In this document: piece after piece, positions 1-23,580 of the stretch
Position numbering within the stretch: position 1 is the first letter of the stretch
Layout of the letters: the number at the start of each line of letters is the position of its first letter
DNA from: a virus
Length of the DNA stretch: 23,580 bases
IMG/VR virus record: IMGVR_UViG_3300020020_000157
Location: 1-23,580 of that record
Direction: 5' to 3' (one strand)
Translations under genes and position numbers: made by a program
The notes under the pieces: model-generated
Told to the model about the DNA's origin: nothing
The model's database searches: none
What the model saw: only the letters and a program-made list of their open reading frames with translations

Positions 1-407
1 TATTGCGTCGGCGCCTGGTAGATCTGCGCCTCGGTGGCCGTGGCGCCGTTGGCGATCTGCTGCTGAGCGGCGCCGACCGCCTTCTCCCGGTCGGCAAGGT
101 TCCGGCGCATCACAACCAGACGCGCCTCGGTGGCCCTGATCGCTGCCTGCGTGTCGGGCGACGGCTGCTTCATGGCCACAACCTGCGCTGTCACAGCCTC
201 GATTTCGCTGCGGAAAGCGGCCGTCAACACGCCGTCGGTCTGCGTCTTGACCGCGGCGACCTCAAGGCGCGTGGCTTCGGCAACACTGGCGAGAGCGTCG
301 AGGCGCCGGTTCTGCTGCCCCTGCATCAACCACTGCCCGCCGACGCTGACCCCGGTCGCGGCGATGAGCGCAACCGCGGCGATGAGCGCGACCACGATCG
401 TGTCCAT
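1..407 (-). CDS. Membrane-anchored coiled-coil protein after endolysin, holin/DUF2746-like (partial)
   Basis: The frame opens with ATG at 407, sharing one base with the endolysin stop (TGATG), and stays open to the left edge, giving about 135 visible residues. The N-terminus is a hydrophobic helix (residues about 3-23, MDTIVVALIAAVALIAATG) with no charged residue after Asp2. A long Gln/Ala/Arg-rich region without Gly-Pro breaks follows and is predicted to be helical coiled coil. The last two bases before the edge are TA, so the next codon is a stop or Tyr. Known pattern: actinophage endolysins are often followed by small one-TM proteins annotated as holin-like or DUF2746. The lysis role is inferred from position and the single TM segment; no diagnostic holin motif is seen. 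It could also be a spanin-like or structural membrane protein. Confidence 0.6.
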   Translation of the reverse strand, partial: MDTIVVALIAAVALIAATGVSVGGQWLMQGQQNRRLDALASVAEATRLEVAAVKTQTDGVLTAAFRSEIEAVTAQVVAMKQPSPDTQAAIRATEARLVVMRRNLADREKAVGAAQQQIANGATATEAQIYQAPTQ

Positions 408-1321
408 CAGTCGGCTTGTTCGTCGAGCTGCTTGTCCACGCGCGCCTCAACAGCGTCCAACGACTCCTCCGACAGCGTCACCTCACCGACCACCGGCGCG
501 GCGGCCGGCGGGTACTCCACGCCCCACACGTCCGGGTCGCCGCTGGACGTGAACACGCCGCCCTGATTGGACAGGTTGCCCAGCAGCAGCGCCTGATGCG
601 CCTGGGCGTTGGTGATCGGGCCGTTTCCGGGGCCCGGGATGGACGCGTCGTCGACCCACTCGGCCCTGACCTTGCGTCGCAGCATGCCGTCACACAGCCA
701 CACCTGGGCAGGGTCGTCCGCATCGCTGAACCGAACCAGCATCTGAGCCATGTCGTTACCTCCGTCTGGGTTGACGCCATTGAGCAGGGCCATGAAGTAG
801 TCCCACGGGAAGTTTGGTCCCGGATCGGTGTGGCTCGTGACGCCGAACGCCAGGCGCAGGTCGTTGTGCGACGTGACACCCGGCCTAAACGCCTTGAGCT
901 CTGCGATCGACCGGCGCACGAGCGGAATGCCGTACCGGGCCGCGTCGGCACGGATGATGGGCGCGATCTGGCCGAGCATCGCCACGCCGAAATCGTCGAG
1001 CCACTGCTCGCGGGTCTGCGACGCGAAGCCCGCCAACTCCCAGTTGATCCCACGATTGTTGCCAGCGCGGTTGCCCACGGTGTACGCGGTGTCGGCCAGC
1101 CGCACGCACTGCACAACCGAGTTCGAGTCGGCGCAGTAGTGCGCGCTGACTACCCGATCATCAGGCAGAGTGGCGAAGTAGTTGGCTACGTTCTCGGCGG
1201 TGGTGGGGAGTTCGTGGGCTTCCATGTCGTGAATCACGACCCACAACGGCGGACCGTCGGGTCGGCCGGGCTGGTAGCGCTTGGCCTGCACGAACGGCAG
1301 CCCGGGGTGGTCTGTGCTCAT
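407..1321 (-). CDS. Endolysin, N-acetylmuramoyl-L-alanine amidase (Amidase_2 type)
   Basis: A 304-residue protein starting with ATG at 1321, overlapping the upstream stop (TAATG). Residues about 20-180 form an Amidase_2 zinc amidase domain: the strand WVVIHDME with His31, the central SAHYCAD strand (His61), the GVTSHNDLR motif (His152) and the family-typical HTDPGPNFPW (His164, Asp166). His31, His152 and Asp166 are the most likely zinc ligands. The enzyme would cut the bond between N-acetylmuramic acid and L-alanine of the host peptidoglycan at the end of infection. After residue about 190 comes a small region with a DPAQVWLCDG segment and an amphipathic acidic C-terminal helix. No LysM, PG_binding_1 or SH3b domain is recognisable. 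There is no signal peptide, so release should depend on a holin, perhaps the next gene. Confidence 0.92.
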   Translation of the reverse strand: MSTDHPGLPFVQAKRYQPGRPDGPPLWVVIHDMEAHELPTTAENVANYFATLPDDRVVSAHYCADSNSVVQCVRLADTAYTVGNRAGNNRGINWELAGFASQTREQWLDDFGVAMLGQIAPIIRADAARYGIPLVRRSIAELKAFRPGVTSHNDLRLAFGVTSHTDPGPNFPWDYFMALLNGVNPDGGNDMAQMLVRFSDADDPAQVWLCDGMLRRKVRAEWVDDASIPGPGNGPITNAQAHQALLLGNLSNQGGVFTSSGDPDVWGVEYPPAAAPVVGEVTLSEESLDAVEARVDKQLDEQAD

Positions 1322-1980
1322 TACGCACGCTCGCCGATGAGCTGGAAGGCGGTACCGGCCACGAAGTTGCCGGCGGTCGGCAGGAACGTCAGCGAGGTGT
1401 ACGGGCCGGCCGCGAGGAATACACCGCCACCATTCGCCAATACACGTAGAGAAACGTTGGCGATCGCCCTGAACAGGTAGTTGATTCCAGCGGTCGACAG
1501 GACCGAATCCCAGTTGGGGAAGTCGACTTCACCCACGGCGAAATAGCCCGCACCTGTGCCAGTACCGGGCGTGTAGCCGATGAACTGGGCAGTGTTGCCG
1601 GCTGTCGCAAAGGGAGTCTCGGTCGCGCCGTCCTGCTCGGTGAACGCGGTCCCATACACCGCTGCCGCCGATCCGTTGATCCGCATCAGCGTGGTTGTGT
1701 GTGAAGCGCCGGTGTCGCCCCGGGCCAGATATTCGACGTGCAGCGACCGCAGCGTCGTCGGGATACCGGAGAACGTGATCGACGGCTCAGCGCCGGTGCA
1801 GACGTGCCGGTCCCGGTAGGGTAGCCGTGCCGTGAGCAGCGCCTCCGCTGCGGCGAGGCGAGCGTCAAGCCCAGCCACCGTCGCCTCGGTGTCCAGCGCC
1901 AGATTCTCGCCGAGGATCGCGCCGTTGGGCGGGTCGGACAGGCCCTGGTAGCGCCAGGCGAAAACTGGGGTTGTCGCCAA
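1321..1980 (-). CDS. Fibre-like virion protein (tail tip or adsorption candidate)
   Basis: 219 residues. The start is TTG at 1980, chosen because an AGGAGG lies six to seven bases upstream on the minus strand and the gene ends in a TAATG overlap with the endolysin. Residues about 25-55 form a short helical stretch (TEATVAGLDARLAAAEALL) that could trimerise. The remainder is Gly/Thr/Ala-rich beta sequence of the type seen in actinophage fibre heads (LHVEYLARGDTG, then a LMRINGS strand, then LTFLPTAGNFVAG). It is the last structural gene before lysis and follows the baseplate genes, so a role at the tail tip is plausible, but no receptor or enzymatic motif is visible. The fibre assignment is inference from architecture and position. 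Confidence 0.55.
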   Translation of the reverse strand: MATTPVFAWRYQGLSDPPNGAILGENLALDTEATVAGLDARLAAAEALLTARLPYRDRHVCTGAEPSITFSGIPTTLRSLHVEYLARGDTGASHTTTLMRINGSAAAVYGTAFTEQDGATETPFATAGNTAQFIGYTPGTGTGAGYFAVGEVDFPNWDSVLSTAGINYLFRAIANVSLRVLANGGGVFLAAGPYTSLTFLPTAGNFVAGTAFQLIGERA

Positions 1981-2047: not shown

Positions 2048-2614
2048 ATGACCGCAACCCGGAGGTTCGTGGCACTCGTGCTGCTCGGCGCGCTCGTGGG
2101 TGGATGCTCAGCGGCCTCGGCTTCGCCCATCCCTCGGTCGCCGACAACGGTCACGCCGCTGCGCTACGTCGTGGCGGGAGACGCGGAGTTCCGATCCGAG
2201 GTGTGGGCGATCCTCGACGCGGGGTGGACGCCCGAGCTCGTCGTACTGGCCGAGAGCGGCCCAGTCGACTTCTTCATCTGGCTCGGCGATCCGGTCGAGA
2301 CGATTTCGCGGTGCGGCATTCCCGCATGCTCGGGCGGTAACGCGGTCGTGATCGACAAGGATCGGTGGTTCAACGGGCGCTACAACAAGCCGCCGGACAT
2401 GATCCCCGCCGTGTGGCGCCGGTTCGTCATCAACCATGAGGTCGGCCACCAGTTGGGTATCCCCGACGACGTCGGTCCGTGCAGCGTCATGAACCCGGAA
2501 GTCTGCACTGGCGTATGGCCGATCATGCCCGACGATTACGTACGGGCATGGGCGCGAGACAATCTCGCCGCCCCCCGGTGGCCGAACGGGAACGTTGGCA
2601 ACGCTAAAGCTTGA
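2048..2614 (+). CDS. Secreted lipoprotein zinc metalloprotease, DUF3152-like (opposite-strand moron)
   Basis: 188 residues, the only plus-strand gene recognised. Start ATG 2048 is preceded by GGGGG four to five bases upstream. The N-terminus is a classical lipoprotein signal: TRR, a hydrophobic core (FVALVLLGALVGG) and lipobox VGGC with Cys20 as acylation site, so the mature protein should be tethered outside the membrane of the expressing cell. The zincin helix is NHEVGHQLGIPD (His130, Glu131, His134, Gly137, Asp140), followed by a Met-turn-like CSVMNP (Met148). The region before it (C89...C94, VVIDKDRW, RRFVINHEVGH) resembles DUF3152 proteins of actinomycetes. The third ligand position is Asp rather than the usual His, as in snapalysin (M7). 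It overlaps the 3' end of the convergent tail gene by 11 bases. Likely a lysogenic-conversion or virion-independent gene; substrate unknown. Confidence 0.85.
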   Translation: MTATRRFVALVLLGALVGGCSAASASPIPRSPTTVTPLRYVVAGDAEFRSEVWAILDAGWTPELVVLAESGPVDFFIWLGDPVETISRCGIPACSGGNAVVIDKDRWFNGRYNKPPDMIPAVWRRFVINHEVGHQLGIPDDVGPCSVMNPEVCTGVWPIMPDDYVRAWARDNLAAPRWPNGNVGNAKA

Positions 2615-3347
2615 AAACGGTCAGCGTGCGACGGTGGAAGTCGACGTTGGCTGAGGCCCCGGCCAGCGTGCGGTACTTCATCGTGATGGTCGTGTCGCCG
2701 GGCGTGAGGCCACCGAATACTGCCTGAGTGGTCGTCGACGTAACCAACACCGGCGTGTTTGTGCCGGCAGACGTAGAGAGAGTCAGAGTGTTCGAACCGA
2801 CGAGCGGGTCGACCGCCTCGCTCGGCGATCGCGTGTTAGCCCCCGCGAACTCGACGTCGAACCGACCGCCGTGCGTCGTCGTGGCGGCGGTGGCGGCGAT
2901 CCACTGGATCTGTGCGGTCGCGATGATCAGGATCCGCCCGCTAGGACCTACCGGCACCGTCACCCGCGGCCCCACCGTGGCGAGGTCGGTGTAGGTCGCG
3001 CTACCCGTGGCCTCGCCGGCGAGGATGAAGTCGGTGTAGATCTGGCTGTTAAGCAGCGACACCGCATCTGTCGCGTCAGCCGTGTTGGGGATCACGATCC
3101 GGCCGTCGATATACATGGTCTTCGCCGGCCCACCGACGGACATGATGCCAACCACGGCACCGGGCACCAGCAGCGTCATTTCGCCGACGCCCTTTAGGGG
3201 AAGATTCGCCAGCACCGTCCCGCCGACCAGCACCGTGTTCTCGAGCGTGACCTGGTCGAAGGTGACGATCACACCCTGACGGAAGCGCACGTCCTGGCTC
3301 GGCGGCTCGGGCGCGGCGGCGAACAGATCGGCTAGGTCGTCGTTCAA
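2604..3347 (-). CDS. Baseplate-like tail protein with N-terminal OB-fold and C-terminal fibre domain
   Basis: 247 residues, TTG start at 3347 directly after the TAG of the upstream gene, with a GGGGGTG run a few bases before it. Residues about 18-80 (RQGVIVTFD, TVLVGGTVLANLPL, TLLVPGAVVGIMSVGG) match the short barrel that opens many actinophage tail-tip proteins, where a gpV/gp5-like OB fold sits at the tail end. Residues about 100-247 are a Thr/Ser/Ala-rich beta domain (GRILIIATAQIQW, GGLTPGDTTITMKYR) resembling fibre or jelly-roll heads. It probably builds the tail tip with the DUF5047-like protein encoded immediately upstream. Its 3' end overlaps the convergent metalloprotease gene by 11 bases. 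Family is assigned by pattern only. Confidence 0.6.
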   Translation of the reverse strand: MNDDLADLFAAAPEPPSQDVRFRQGVIVTFDQVTLENTVLVGGTVLANLPLKGVGEMTLLVPGAVVGIMSVGGPAKTMYIDGRIVIPNTADATDAVSLLNSQIYTDFILAGEATGSATYTDLATVGPRVTVPVGPSGRILIIATAQIQWIAATAATTTHGGRFDVEFAGANTRSPSEAVDPLVGSNTLTLSTSAGTNTPVLVTSTTTQAVFGGLTPGDTTITMKYRTLAGASANVDFHRRTLTVFKL

Positions 3348-4507: not shown

Positions 4508-5056
4508 TCAGGCCCCGCCGCCGTGCAGTCGTTGACCCGCCCCGTCGAAGCGCCAATGGCACGAGACACAAAGCGGGATGTAGTGATCTGGTTTCAGGCT
4601 GTACCTACATCCCCGCCTGTCAACCAGATCCTGCGGATCCGCCTTGTCGTAAGCCCAGTGCGCGGCCCGCTCACCGCAATGGAGACAAGCGTGTCCTCTG
4701 ACCGGACCATGACGAGCCGCCGCACGGCGATGGGCGGCGGTGTACCCCGCGGACCCACCCTTCCATCGCGGATGACTCTCGGCCGGAGACCCGGCAATCC
4801 ACCCGCCGTGATCAACGTGATTTGGGTCCCCGTGCTTATACCACCGCTGGTAGTGCATGATGCAGTAACCGCTACTGCGATGCTTGCGTTCGCAGCCAGG
4901 AACCGCACAGGGGGGACGACCGGTCTTTATCGGGGCCGTGCCGACGCTCCCGGTTTTGCGCCAACGGCGGTAGTGAGCATCGCAGAGTTGTGCTGGCGTG
5001 CAGACCACAATGCGCCGATCGCAGCCGTCAACAGAACAGGTTCGGGTAGCCTGCAT
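4508..5056 (-). CDS. Free-standing HNH homing endonuclease with two zinc knuckles
   Basis: 182 residues, ATG start at 5056 with AAGGGG seven bases upstream. Two tandem N-terminal knuckles each have a CxxxxC...CxxHY pattern: Cys7, Cys12, Cys25, His28, and Cys50, Cys55, Cys65, His68, each followed by RW..(T/H)G. These are typical DNA-contacting modules of phage HNH enzymes. The C-terminal part carries CLHC (124-127), AHWAYDKADP, then SLKPDHYIPLCVSCHWRF with Asp157-His158, Cys163/Cys166 and His167, a treble-clef HNH site. It should nick or cut DNA at an allele lacking the insertion. It lies between two intact tail genes, so it is free-standing and not inside an intron or intein. Its basic, Trp/Cys-rich composition differs from its neighbours. 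Confidence 0.88.
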   Translation of the reverse strand: MQATRTCSVDGCDRRIVVCTPAQLCDAHYRRWRKTGSVGTAPIKTGRPPCAVPGCERKHRSSGYCIMHYQRWYKHGDPNHVDHGGWIAGSPAESHPRWKGGSAGYTAAHRRAAARHGPVRGHACLHCGERAAHWAYDKADPQDLVDRRGCRYSLKPDHYIPLCVSCHWRFDGAGQRLHGGGA

Positions 5057-12079: not shown

Positions 12080-12922
12080 CTACGGTCGGGCGGTTGATGT
12101 GGTGACCGGCCGCAGGATCACGTCAGCGTTGAGTTGGGGTGTAACCCCGGAATCGGGGCGCAGGGTGACAGGAGTAGCGCCGATCCCGCCAGATGCCGTC
12201 GCAGTGAAACTGAACGCGACCGATGCGATACCGAAGCGCTCCGGGAAACCAACGGCAGTCGCAGCGAACGTAAAGTCGGTGAGGGCGGCCCCCATGACCG
12301 GACCGGCAGCGGCACCGGACGCGCTGGCGGTGAAGACCAGCGCGGCGAGCACCTGGCCGCCCGTTCCGCGTACGCCGGCCGCTGTCGCGGCGAACGTTTC
12401 CGCCGCAACCGCTTGGCCCTGCACCCCGGGTACACCGTTAGCGGTGGCGCCCAGCGTGTAGGCGCCGAGGCCTTGGCCGTTGTGGCCCGGTACCCCCAGG
12501 GCGGCGCCGGTGTAGGTATAGGCACCGAGAGCGGCCCCGTTGTGGCCGACGGTGCCGACCACGGTGGAGCCGAAGGTGTAGGCACCGAGGGCGGTGCCGT
12601 TGACTGGGGGTGCTCCGGCTACCCCGGATGCGGTGCCGTCGAAGACGATAGTTGCGGCCGCGGCGCCGACGACGCCGGGGACACCAAGGGCGGGGGATCC
12701 GAAGGTGTAGGAGCCGGCCGCTTGCCCGACCACACCGGGGACGCCGGCTGCGGTGGAGCCAAACCCGATGGCGGCTGCGGCCTGACCGACGACGCCGGGT
12801 GTGCCTAGTGCGGTGCCGGTGAAGGTGAAGGCGGCGAGGGCGGTGCCGGTGACCGCACCACCGCCCGCGACGGCTGCTAGCGGTAGCGGCGCATATCTGA
12901 CGTTGCTGCTGCCGCGCGCCAC
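12080..12922 (-). CDS. Tandem-repeat beta protein, virion appendage candidate
   Basis: 280 residues from GTG 12922. After a 24-residue leader (with SSNVRYAPLPL), residues 25-252 consist of about eleven repeats of 20-22 residues, consensus G-x-A-x-x-A-Y/F-x-F-x-x-T-A-x-G-V-P-G-V-x. Then a 28-residue C-terminal piece (TLRPDSGVTPQLNADVILRP) follows. The regular aromatic-Thr-Ala-Gly rhythm suggests a solenoid or a chain of short beta hairpins. There are no Cys and almost no charged residues until the C-terminal part. It sits in the block between the head-tail adaptor and the stopper with four other fibre-like genes, so a head- or neck-attached fibre is the best guess. Repeat number is likely variable between relatives. 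Confidence 0.65.
   Translation of the reverse strand: MARGSSNVRYAPLPLAAVAGGGAVTGTALAAFTFTGTALGTPGVVGQAAAAIGFGSTAAGVPGVVGQAAGSYTFGSPALGVPGVVGAAAATIVFDGTASGVAGAPPVNGTALGAYTFGSTVVGTVGHNGAALGAYTYTGAALGVPGHNGQGLGAYTLGATANGVPGVQGQAVAAETFAATAAGVRGTGGQVLAALVFTASASGAAAGPVMGAALTDFTFAATAVGFPERFGIASVAFSFTATASGGIGATPVTLRPDSGVTPQLNADVILRPVTTSTARP
12167..12850 (-). repeat. Coding tandem repeats, about 11 units of 60-66 bp
   Basis: DNA encoding the repeat region of the 12080-12922 gene. Units are diverged at the base level but share runs such as those encoding GVPGVVGQA (two copies near the N-terminus) and LGAYT (three copies in the middle). The spacing is 60 bp for most units and 63 or 66 bp for the others, always in frame. 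Confidence 0.75.
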
Positions 12923-20487: not shown

Positions 20488-21285
20488 TTAGAAGAGTCGG
20501 CCGGGAAGTGGTGGCTTACCCGTAACGGCCAGCGCGACGTGGTAAGACCAGTCCTCCTGGCGGGTCCGCGCATTCTTCGAGAAGTTGCAGAACAGATGAG
20601 CCAGCGCCACGTTCGTCCAGACGTGCCCGGGGCAACCGGGCTCGTTGAACGGAATGATGTGGTCGAGGCTCGCCATCATGGGAGCGCGACCGGCGAGGGT
20701 CTTGTCGACGGGAAGCCTGCACAGATGACAAACCCAGCCGTCGCGCTCGAAGACCGCCCAGCGGGAGAATTGTTCAGCGGGTAGCGACTCCATGCGGGCT
20801 CGTCGGACGACTTGATTCGCCATCGCGGTGCAACTGTTGGTGCAATGGCGCTTGTTGTAGCGCGCCTCATTCGGGATCGGCTTGCCGCAGTACTCGCAGG
20901 CCCGGTTGGCGAAGTACTCGGCGCTGCCCGGAAACATGCGCTCACGCCGTTCGCACCGCTCACCGCAGTACCGACGTCCAGCCTTAACATCCACCAGCGC
21001 GGCCCCACAATGAGCGCAGGCCACGTGTCGAATATAGGGGGCGACGACGCCCCTCCGGCGACGCTTGGTCGCCGCCGACGCGCACAGCGGCGAGCAGTGC
21101 AACTGGTGGCGGTTACGGTCAGGCGGAAGCGGCACGCTGCAGACTTGGCAGTCCGCGGCGCCATACGGGACGCCCGGGTGCTTCCGGTTCCACATGTAGC
21201 ACCGGTTGCAACAAGTGACCTGCTTCTGTGGGTACCGCGGCGTGAATTGCCCATGGCAAACCACGCACACCTTAGGCTGGTGCAC
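20488..21285 (-). CDS. Free-standing HNH endonuclease with four N-terminal zinc knuckles
   Basis: 265 residues, GTG start at 21285 with AGGAG six bases upstream. Four CxxC...CxxxC-type knuckles follow each other: Cys7/10/25/29, Cys46/49/64/68, Cys90/93/107/111 and Cys130/133/148/152. A linker helix (AEQFSRWAVFERDGW) leads to the HNH nuclease: CHLC (186-189), SLDHIIPFN (Asp208, His209), WTNVALAH (Asn225, His230) and Cys233. The C-terminus is short (GKPPLPGRLF). The enzyme is expected to cut DNA in a related phage lacking the gene. It lies between the ART protein and the protease, both intact, and hairpins lie on both sides. The many Cys and basic residues contrast with the structural genes. 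Confidence 0.88.
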   Translation of the reverse strand: MHQPKVCVVCHGQFTPRYPQKQVTCCNRCYMWNRKHPGVPYGAADCQVCSVPLPPDRNRHQLHCSPLCASAATKRRRRGVVAPYIRHVACAHCGAALVDVKAGRRYCGERCERRERMFPGSAEYFANRACEYCGKPIPNEARYNKRHCTNSCTAMANQVVRRARMESLPAEQFSRWAVFERDGWVCHLCRLPVDKTLAGRAPMMASLDHIIPFNEPGCPGHVWTNVALAHLFCNFSKNARTRQEDWSYHVALAVTGKPPLPGRLF

Positions 21286-21352: not shown

Positions 21353-23580
21353 CTAGCCAGGACCGAGCGGGTTCGACCCCTTACGCTCGCCGGACCAGAT
21401 GCCGAAGACCTCCCAAAACCACTTACTGGCGAAGATCTTCGCTTTATGCACTCCGACATGCTCTGTCAGCAGCGCTACGAGCGTGGTCCAGGGCGTTGGC
21501 GAGCCTCGCCAACGCATCAACCCAGGACCCTTTGTCCAGTAGTGGTGCAGTTCGTCGTTTCCGGGTGTGACGTCGTGCCCGGCGGCGGCGCGAACGCGGC
21601 TAGCCTTCTTCACCATCGCCGCAGTCGGTGCCAGTTCGTCGATCTGCTCCGGTGTGAAGCCCAACGACCGCAGCCGTGCCCGCTTCTGGCGGATGGTGAG
21701 ACCGGAAAGGTCCGGTACAACCCCGTGATACGCAGCGGTGCCGTAAGACGGAGTAGTGTCCACGACCCACTTCGCGACGTCCATATGCTCGGCGAGGCTG
21801 TTCCCGGTCATCTTGCCCGGCGCCACCTTCTTGGCGGCGGCGGGTGTGCCGGTGGCCTTGCGGGGGGCGGCGGGCCGTGGTCGGGGTGAGGGGTCCTCGG
21901 CCGGTGGCGGAAGCTCGTGCGTTGCGGCTTTCGGGCTAGGCTCACGGACGATCAAGGCCGACCGGTTAAACACGAGGACTTCGTCCTCAAGGCTTCCTTC
22001 GATGCGCATTGCGTCGAAGCCGCGAGATGCCACATACCGACCCAGATCGGAGAACACGCGGTGTTCATCACTGTCGGGATCGAGGCCGGCGAGGAAGGTC
22101 TTGTGCTCCTCTTTCAATTCGCGCCAGTCCGCGACTCGCGCATCGGGGGGGAGCGCCATCCGAATCGGATTCGGCCCGTATCGGCGGGCGGTGTGCAACT
22201 GCCGGGACGTGTAGATACCACTGCCCCACACCCCAGTAGGCAGGTAGGTGTCACCAGCCCGCAGCCGGTCGGCGAAATCGTCTTCGTTTCCTCCCGCGCT
22301 GCCCAGCGCGAACACGCCTCGATAGAGCGGCAGGTGGCCATCGGCCACCAAGCGGTCAAACTCGGCAACGCTGACTACGCGCGGCGGCCGGTCGAAGCCC
22401 TGCCGCTCGGCGATTGCGAACGCGACCTCATCGCCATGAGGGCCTGCGATCTGGCCATATGAGCCCTCGCTCGTGCGGCGACTGGTTGCTGTCGCTAGCG
22501 CCGAACTGGCCACCTCGGCGGTAGCACCATCGCCGATGAGATCGGAACCGTTGACTCTAGCCGCTACGCCGGGTGTGCCGGTGGCCTTGCGGGGGGTGGC
22601 CTTCTTGGCCGGTGCCCGCTTCGCCGGCGGCTTCCCGCCCCGCTCCTTGCGTGCCCACTGCGCGGCCTCGTCCGGACTGGCCTCCTCGACGACGGCCTTG
22701 CTGAGCCGCACCTTCTCGCCGTCACGGTCGTACTCGTAGCCGGGCCGCACCACGTGCACAACCGCAGACGCCTTCGTGCCGGCGATCATCTGATGCCGCG
22801 TCCGGTCGAAAGACTCCACCCCGCCGGCCGAGCCAGTCGGGGTCAAGCCGTGGTCCTTCGCAATGTCGGCGCGAACCTTGTCGACCTTGCGGCGATCACC
22901 GGTCGCCACCGCGGCGAGTAGCCGGTCCACCACATCGTCGGGTGCCCCGCCCTGACGCGCAGCCTTCAGCCGGCGCTCCACCACGACCCGATCGGCTTCG
23001 CTGTCGAGAAGCTCATCCACCTCGGCGAGGGTGTCGGCGACAGTGCGGGCCTTGTCGATCTGAGACTGGCGGTCGGTGGCGTCCTTCTGAAGGCCGCGGT
23101 TCTTCTCGGTCCTTGCCCACTGCGCCAGCCGTGGCTCGCCGTTGGCCTCAGCCCATTTCTCCATCTCGGCAAGCGAGTCGAAGCGCTGCACCAGCGCGCC
23201 GCGTTTGCCGTTCTCGTCCTCGCGGAACAAGGCCGGGTGGCCGTCCTTGTCGCGGTAGACGGCCACATCCAGGTCGCGGAGGGACTTCGGCAGCGGGCGG
23301 GGCGAGGCATCACCGAACGAGATTGCGTGCTTGTCCTGGCCGCCAACGTGAATCGCGGCGTCCCGATCCGCCTGGGTGAGTGCCTTCTGGTTTGACTGCG
23401 GCACGACAACCGGATCGCCCGGCCCGTCATAGTCGCCGCGATTCATCCGCGTCAACGCCGCATCAACGTCGCTGCGTGGAAGATCACCCAGCTTGCGGCG
23501 AAGATCCGACAGCATCACGTGGTCGGTGCCGACCTCGCGGTACGCCGCCCGGATCCGGTTCTCGACCTCGATCTCGCGGA
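21353..23580 (-). CDS. ADP-ribosyltransferase-containing minor capsid/toxin protein, MuF-like context (partial)
   Basis: The frame is open from the right edge; residues are counted from the in-frame GTG at 23518, with at least 20 more codons before it. Residues 1-70 contain NQKALTQADRDAAIHVGGQDKH, a motif recurring in actinobacterial phage proteins. Residues about 110-225 are helical. An Ala/Lys/Pro linker (298-320) leads to an ADP-ribosyltransferase domain (about 325-530): LYRG with Arg400, GSGIYTS (STS-like motif, Ser438), and EDEVLVFNRSAL, an ExE motif with Glu511/Glu513 that would favour arginine targets. A second, similar linker (548-569) is followed by a C-terminal module with HHYWTKGPGLMRW. 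It lies upstream of the protease, where MuF proteins occur; phage MuF-ART polymorphic toxins are known. The MuF domain itself, if present, is outside the window. Confidence 0.68.
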   Translation of the reverse strand, partial: REIEVENRIRAAYREVGTDHVMLSDLRRKLGDLPRSDVDAALTRMNRGDYDGPGDPVVVPQSNQKALTQADRDAAIHVGGQDKHAISFGDASPRPLPKSLRDLDVAVYRDKDGHPALFREDENGKRGALVQRFDSLAEMEKWAEANGEPRLAQWARTEKNRGLQKDATDRQSQIDKARTVADTLAEVDELLDSEADRVVVERRLKAARQGGAPDDVVDRLLAAVATGDRRKVDKVRADIAKDHGLTPTGSAGGVESFDRTRHQMIAGTKASAVVHVVRPGYEYDRDGEKVRLSKAVVEEASPDEAAQWARKERGGKPPAKRAPAKKATPRKATGTPGVAARVNGSDLIGDGATAEVASSALATATSRRTSEGSYGQIAGPHGDEVAFAIAERQGFDRPPRVVSVAEFDRLVADGHLPLYRGVFALGSAGGNEDDFADRLRAGDTYLPTGVWGSGIYTSRQLHTARRYGPNPIRMALPPDARVADWRELKEEHKTFLAGLDPDSDEHRVFSDLGRYVASRGFDAMRIEGSLEDEVLVFNRSALIVREPSPKAATHELPPPAEDPSPRPRPAAPRKATGTPAAAKKVAPGKMTGNSLAEHMDVAKWVVDTTPSYGTAAYHGVVPDLSGLTIRQKRARLRSLGFTPEQIDELAPTAAMVKKASRVRAAAGHDVTPGNDELHHYWTKGPGLMRWRGSPTPWTTLVALLTEHVGVHKAKIFASKWFWEVFGIWSGERKGSNPLGPG
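21841..21867. repeat. 27-bp direct repeat, copy 1 (C-terminal side of ART domain)
   Basis: Exact 27-base match to 22570-22596, beginning CGGGTGTGCC and ending in six G. It encodes the ARKATGTP-like linker after the ART domain on the minus strand. The distance between copies is 729 bp, a multiple of three. Confidence 0.9.
22570..22596. repeat. 27-bp direct repeat, copy 2 (N-terminal side of ART domain)
   Basis: Partner of 21841-21867, in the same orientation and reading frame, encoding the linker before the ART domain. The bases on both sides of the match differ between the copies. Confidence 0.9.

What the first reader, a model, noticed from the sequence alone, without database searches (positions are those of the whole stretch)
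2048..2614. Lone opposite-strand lipoprotein metalloprotease inside the late operon
A gene with a clear lipobox (Cys20) and an HExxHxxGxxD zincin motif sits on the plus strand between tail and lysis genes transcribed the other way. A secreted, lipid-anchored protease has no role in siphovirus assembly. Orientation and position fit a moron expressed from its own promoter, possibly in a lysogen: surface remodelling, superinfection exclusion or a fitness factor are options.
Basis: partly seen in the sequence, partly recalled or inferred. Interest (0 to 1): 0.75.

Follow-up and report, generated by a model that had tools for sequence, protein, structure and literature searches.

The report
Surface-anchored protease gene in an actinophage
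A bacterial virus, probably of actinobacteria, carries a backwards-facing extra gene for a small zinc protease predicted to sit on the outside of the infected cell; two other, largely unrelated viruses carry a similar gene (one at the same spot), so it is probably a real accessory that changes the host surface, although what it cuts is unknown.

Summary
Window 2048-2614 (+) is a genuine 188-aa gene. It encodes a lipoprotein signal peptide (lipobox LVGGC, Cys20), the zinc motif HEVGHQLGIPD and a Met-turn (CSVM). It passes Pfam's cut-off for DUF3152, an uncharacterised actinobacterial family; its predicted fold matches solved metzincins, with snapalysin, an Asp-zincin, tied at the top. The window is a slice (100% identical) of a 51-kb viral contig that carries a tyrosine integrase and a repressor on this gene's strand, opposite to the lytic genes, so the phage is probably temperate. 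Two other environmental phages encode relatives. In one apparently complete 42-kb genome with unrelated tail and endolysin proteins, the relative sits in the same place: opposite strand, between the last tail gene and the endolysin. None was found in 50,697 named phages, and none of this compact type in 396 sampled Actinomycetota genomes. Best reading: an accessory ('moron') surface protease expressed apart from the late operon, probably in lysogens. Superinfection exclusion is plausible but untested. The second phage lacks a detectable integrase, which weakens a purely prophage explanation.

The parts
2048..2614 (+). Gene for the 188-aa lipoprotein metzincin (P0001), DUF3152-related
   Evidence: ORF, codon statistics, Pfam DUF3152 29.0 bits
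2048..2107 (+). Lipoprotein signal peptide and lipobox LVGGC; Cys20 codon at 2105-2107
   Evidence: read directly from the translation
2435..2467 (+). Zinc-binding motif HEVGHQLGIPD (H130, E131, H134, G137, D140)
   Evidence: sequence; NHEVGH invariant in 23 aligned proteins
2480..2491 (+). C145-S-V-M148, Met-turn
   Evidence: V147 and M148 invariant in 23 aligned proteins
2604..2614 (.). 11-bp tail-to-tail overlap with the stop end of the minus-strand minor tail gene
   Evidence: ORF coordinates; an 8-bp overlap of the same kind in L009
1981..2047 (.). 67-bp non-coding gap upstream of the gene, the only place for a promoter of its own
   Evidence: ORF coordinates; no sigma-70-like site found
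2604..3347 (-). Flanking minor tail protein
   Evidence: phrog_7565, E=3e-10
1321..1980 (-). Flanking ORF of unknown function
   Evidence: no Pfam or PHROG match
407..1321 (-). Endolysin, Amidase_2
   Evidence: Pfam E=1e-13, endolysin PHROGs

Best explanation
The gene is an accessory ('moron') cargo gene of a temperate phage, probably of an actinobacterium. Its product is exported, lipid-modified at Cys20 and tethered outside the cytoplasmic membrane, where a compact metzincin domain of DUF3152 ancestry (zinc held by H130, H134 and D140, E131 as catalyst) cleaves proteins at the cell surface. It is transcribed apart from, and opposite to, the late operon, most likely in the lysogen, since its strand is that of the repressor and integrase. 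The likeliest benefit is a changed envelope that hinders adsorption or DNA entry of competing phages; a general fitness effect is the alternative. Shown here: gene, family match, motif, predicted fold, strand, integrase on the same contig, recurrence in other phages, absence at the matching junction of distant relatives. Inferred: export, lipidation, zinc binding, proteolysis, lysogen expression, host group. Untested guess: superinfection exclusion.
For: Gene and family. Fold: metzincins on top in Foldseek and VIA-align, snapalysin Z 8.9. Temperate context and shared strand with repressor and integrase on the parent contig G001; same strand layout in temperate Gordonia phage Walrus. Recurrence at the tail-endolysin junction, opposite strand, in G003 with non-homologous flanking proteins; a third phage carries a lipoprotein relative. 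Absent at the junction in L085, L088 and Streptomyces phage Samy. Precedent: Ltp of TP-J34, a prophage-expressed lipoprotein blocking DNA injection (PMC3952083).
Against: No promoter or terminator found by the scan. G003, apparently complete, has no integrase by Pfam, so the same layout exists without an obvious prophage state. In G006 the relative lies elsewhere, co-oriented with its neighbours. No PADLOC match. The third zinc ligand is Asp and activity is unproven.
Confidence: 0.5

Rival explanations
1. A lytic-phase envelope protease: made during lytic growth from its own promoter, it helps lysis or release by degrading surface proteins, or stops progeny sticking to host debris; the lysis-proximal place reflects function.
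For: Place next to the endolysin in two unrelated phages; G003 lacks a detectable integrase.
Against: Opposite strand to the lysis genes in both; same strand as repressor and integrase in G001; not near recognised lysis genes in the parts of G006 read.
Confidence: 0.18
2. A host-fitness lipoprotease (nutrient acquisition, envelope maintenance or competition) picked up from an actinobacterial chromosome, expressed by lysogens but without effect on other phages.
For: The family is common in Actinomycetota chromosomes, so host-side roles exist.
Against: The compact active-site form was not seen in 396 Actinomycetota genomes; it recurs in phages.
Confidence: 0.2
3. A structural or virion-associated protein encoded against the operon.
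For: It lies next to tail genes.
Against: Lipoprotein signal peptide and opposite strand; no tail-type family; the protease fold fills the modelled mature protein.
Confidence: 0.05
4. A chance or decayed ORF with no product.
For: No promoter found.
Against: Codon statistics, over-cut-off family match, intact motif and signal peptide, relatives in other phages.
Confidence: 0.03

Closest known systems
DUF3152 (Pfam PF11350), e.g. M. tuberculosis Rv3207c and chromosomal proteins of Micromonosporaceae
   Same: Over-cut-off match; NHEVGH, C89, V-M Met-turn, C153 and W157-P shared; exported
   Different: Asp instead of His as third ligand; short CSVM loop in place of CPGxGxxAPVMxQQT; much shorter protein; lipobox; phage-borne
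Snapalysin (peptidase M7, 1kuh, 4hx3)
   Same: HExxHxxGxxD zinc motif and metzincin fold, Z 8.9
   Different: Sequence match far below the Pfam and NCBIfam cut-offs; snapalysin is a free secreted enzyme (own knowledge)
Ltp of Streptococcus thermophilus phage TP-J34 (PMC3952083)
   Same: Phage-encoded surface lipoprotein; proposed exclusion of other phages
   Different: Not described as a protease; resides in the lysogeny module, whereas this gene lies inside the late region
Prophage-mediated defence genes of mycobacteriophages, e.g. Sbash 30 and 31 (PMC6426596)
   Same: Accessory genes in the central part of temperate actinophage genomes, expressed from the prophage
   Different: Different proteins; expression not measured here

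Membership tests
DUF3152 (PF11350) | Whole-protein score above Pfam's curated cut-off (25.1 bits) | tested here: met
   29.0 bits, E=1e-6
DUF3152 (PF11350) | NHEVGH helix motif, conserved Cys pair and W-P | tested here: met
   Invariant or nearly invariant columns shared
DUF3152 (PF11350) | Third His (HExxHxxGxxH) and the APVMxQQT loop of chromosomal members | tested here: not met
   D140 and GPCSVMNPE instead; hence called a divergent, compact variant
Snapalysin, peptidase M7 | Score above the family cut-off (Pfam 25, NCBIfam 300) | tested here: not met
   12.9 and 15.8 bits
Snapalysin, peptidase M7 | HExxHxxGxxD motif | tested here: met
   H130-D140
Metzincin superfamily | Metzincin fold with extended zinc motif and Met-turn | tested here: met
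   Model pLDDT 75, pTM 0.74; top matches are metzincins; moderate scores
Lipoprotein | n-region, hydrophobic core and lipobox ending in Cys | tested here: met
   MTATRRFVALVLLGALVGGC, read by eye, no dedicated predictor run
Phage moron | Extra gene between genes that are adjacent in relatives | tested here: met
   Junction collinear without it in L085, L088 and Samy, distant relatives only
Phage moron | Own promoter and terminator | tested here: inconclusive
   None found with sigma-70-type consensus; actinobacterial promoters poorly covered
Phage moron | Expressed from the prophage | not testable with these tools
   Needs RNA data; only strand and integrase context available
Superinfection-exclusion lipoprotein | Blocks infection by other phages | not testable with these tools
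   Needs phage challenge; no PADLOC match

The most novel reading that the evidence does not exclude
Environmental actinophages carry a so far undescribed class of compact, surface-anchored DUF3152-type metzincins, repeatedly installed against the late operon at the tail-lysis junction, that exclude competing phages by cutting surface receptors or incoming tail proteins: superinfection exclusion by proteolysis.
Probability: 0.17. Interest if true: 0.78.

Novelty: new variant of a known kind. Interest (0 to 1): 0.48.

Why it matters
The best-known superinfection-exclusion lipoproteins act by binding or blocking; a membrane-tethered protease would be a different way for a phage to remodel the host surface. 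The gene also gives a small, testable entry into DUF3152, a widespread actinobacterial exported family (including Rv3207c) with no established function that I could find. Recurrence at the same kind of junction in an unrelated phage marks that junction as a place to look for cargo genes.

Tried and rejected
tblastn of P0001, the L009 and L012 proteins and a canonical DUF3152 protein against 50,697 named phages: nothing. Viral-contig scan for NHE[FILM]GHxLG gave other zincin-like proteins and non-proteins; L036 and L093 from the Met-turn patterns were not clear DUF3152 members. L007 and L010 are DUF3152 proteins without an obvious signal peptide in viral contigs of another kind; L011 is only a weak match. 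Pattern for the compact active site in 396 Actinomycetota genomes: none. A profile search (67 of 346 genomes positive) gave mostly long forms; the short hits I read were canonical or diverged DUF3152, a snapalysin-like protein or unrelated zincins. A tree grouped the three phage proteins with weak support (61/91) and long branches: inconclusive. Alignments with the full C-terminus misplaced the Met-turn and were replaced by a trimmed one. No tRNA in the contigs to hint at attB. Literature: one paper in the library names DUF3152, not in phages. Rejected: antisense artefact.

Full report
What is there. The ORF at 2048-2614 (+) encodes 188 aa. Its N-terminus MTATRRFVALVLLGALVGGC looks like a standard lipoprotein signal sequence with Cys20 at +1. 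Downstream are NHEVGHQLGIPD and CSVM. Pfam DUF3152 is matched at 29.0 bits (cut-off 25.1, E=1e-6); M7, M10 and others stay below their cut-offs. A codon model trained on the window's own late genes scores this frame +31.8 and all five other frames negative, so it is a gene and not an antisense shadow. Over the 51-kb parent contig a similar model genes, only five of them on the plus strand: the integrase, a small ORF after it, a DUF2637 membrane protein, this gene and one doubtful 76-aa ORF. The HTH repressor just before the integrase is also on the plus strand but falls under the codon threshold; Pfam and PHROGs recognise it.

Context. The window is identical over all 23,580 bases to G001:8083-31662 (IMGVR_UViG_3300020003_000002, 51,133 bp). 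G001 carries a tyrosine integrase, which with the repressor makes the phage very probably temperate. The repressor-integrase block on one strand against the lytic genes on the other is the layout of Gordonia phage Walrus. The protease gene overlaps the stop of the minor tail gene 2604-3347 by 11 bp. On its other side, after a 67-bp gap, follow an ORF without family (1321-1980) and the Amidase_2 endolysin. No sigma-70-type promoter or intrinsic terminator was found; this says little for an actinobacterial host. That the host is an actinobacterium is inferred from the relatives of the tail protein, integrase, endolysin and protease.

Relatives. tblastn against 50,697 named phages found nothing, also with two phage relatives and a bacterial member as queries. 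A degenerate pattern for NHEVGHxLG in viral contigs led to L009 in G003 (42,530 bp) and L012 in G006 (81,007 bp); both proteins pass the DUF3152 cut-off (54.6 and 34.4 bits). Both contigs have exact 127-bp terminal repeats, so they look complete. G+C is 66% in G001, 61% in G003 and 44% in the 12 kb of G006 that was measured. Between G001 and G003 only a few short matches were found at E below 1e-4, probably among HNH endonucleases; G001 and G006 (two parts compared) share the protease and one further small protein. In G003 the protease is on the plus strand directly between the last tail gene and an Amidase_2 endolysin, both minus-strand, with an 8-bp tail-to-tail overlap. BLASTP finds no homology between the flanking proteins of the two phages, so the layout either arose twice or the flanks diverged beyond recognition. 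With roughly sixty gene positions per genome, a coincidence of place and strand in one of two other carriers has a chance of a few per cent (my estimate, made after seeing the data). The tail-lysis interval is also a place where actinophages tolerate reverse-strand genes: mycobacteriophage Sabbb has a reverse HTH gene there. G003 has no integrase by Pfam, so the relative there need not be a prophage gene. In G006 the gene is co-oriented with its neighbours and not seen beside tail genes.

Presence and absence. Viral contigs whose endolysin is 56-64% identical to the window's and which have tail-type genes just upstream (L085, L088) are collinear at this junction without the gene. So is Streptomyces phage Samy, related through the DUF5047 tail protein. 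These are distant relatives, but they fit an inserted accessory gene.

Protein. In an alignment with 22 relatives (numbering of the full protein, column positions plus 19) L56, W60, F75, C89, N129-H134, V147, M148, C153 and W157 are invariant. Chromosomal members have HExxHxxGxxH and CPGxGxxAPVMxQQT; P0001 has HExxHxxGxxD and a short GPCSVMNPE. The compact pattern was not found in 396 Actinomycetota genomes, while a family profile matched 67 of 346. AlphaFold gives pLDDT 75 and pTM 0.74. Foldseek's best hits are MMP-13 and karilysin, and the VIA-align list holds metzincins, with snapalysin tied at the top at Z 8.9. Scores are moderate, but the listed matches agree and the motif supports them. 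By sequence it is a divergent DUF3152 member; it is expected to work like an Asp-zincin metzincin.

Function. A lipid-anchored extracellular protease on the repressor/integrase strand of a temperate phage is best read as cargo that modifies the lysogen's surface. Ltp of phage TP-J34 is the closest working precedent: a prophage-expressed lipoprotein that stops DNA injection (PMC3952083). Mycobacteriophage defence genes expressed from the prophage are another (PMC6426596). Whether the product excludes phages, helps the host otherwise or acts in the lytic phase cannot be decided from sequence.

Verdict. New variant of a known kind, interest 0.48.

Noticed in passing
window 21353-23518 (-); the full frame is G001:29435-33511: End of a very long ORF (about 1,358 aa in G001), starting like a portal-type protein and ending in a low-similarity region with an 'LYRGV...GIYTS' stretch that recalls ADP-ribosyltransferase-like domains; no Pfam family over cut-off.
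   Followed up: partly
L004:6016-7467 (-), outside the window on G001: Second exported protein after the lysis genes: 483 aa with signal peptide, Pro/Thr/Ser-rich linker and a possible beta-helix; no Pfam, PHROG or PADLOC match.
   Followed up: partly
window 12080-12922 (-): Protein of about 20-aa Gly/Ala/Thr-rich repeats (GxPGVVGQAA...), tail-fibre-like, no Pfam match.
   Followed up: no
window 4508-5056 and 20488-21285 (-): Two HNH-type endonuclease genes inside the structural region, codon usage of the first unlike the other genes.
   Followed up: no
L007:7625-8101 (-) and L010:2153-2620 (-): Strong DUF3152 matches (about 80-88 bits) without signal peptide in two viral contigs that do not look like actinophages, possibly giant viruses.
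   Followed up: partly
L011:6134-6832 (-) and L034 near 1263-1851 (+): Two further exported zincin-like proteins in phage contigs, similar to each other, not clear DUF3152 members.
   Followed up: no
L004:666-1004 (-) and L021 near 65251-65592 of G006 (-): A small protein shared at about 65% identity by the otherwise different contigs G001 and G006.
   Followed up: no
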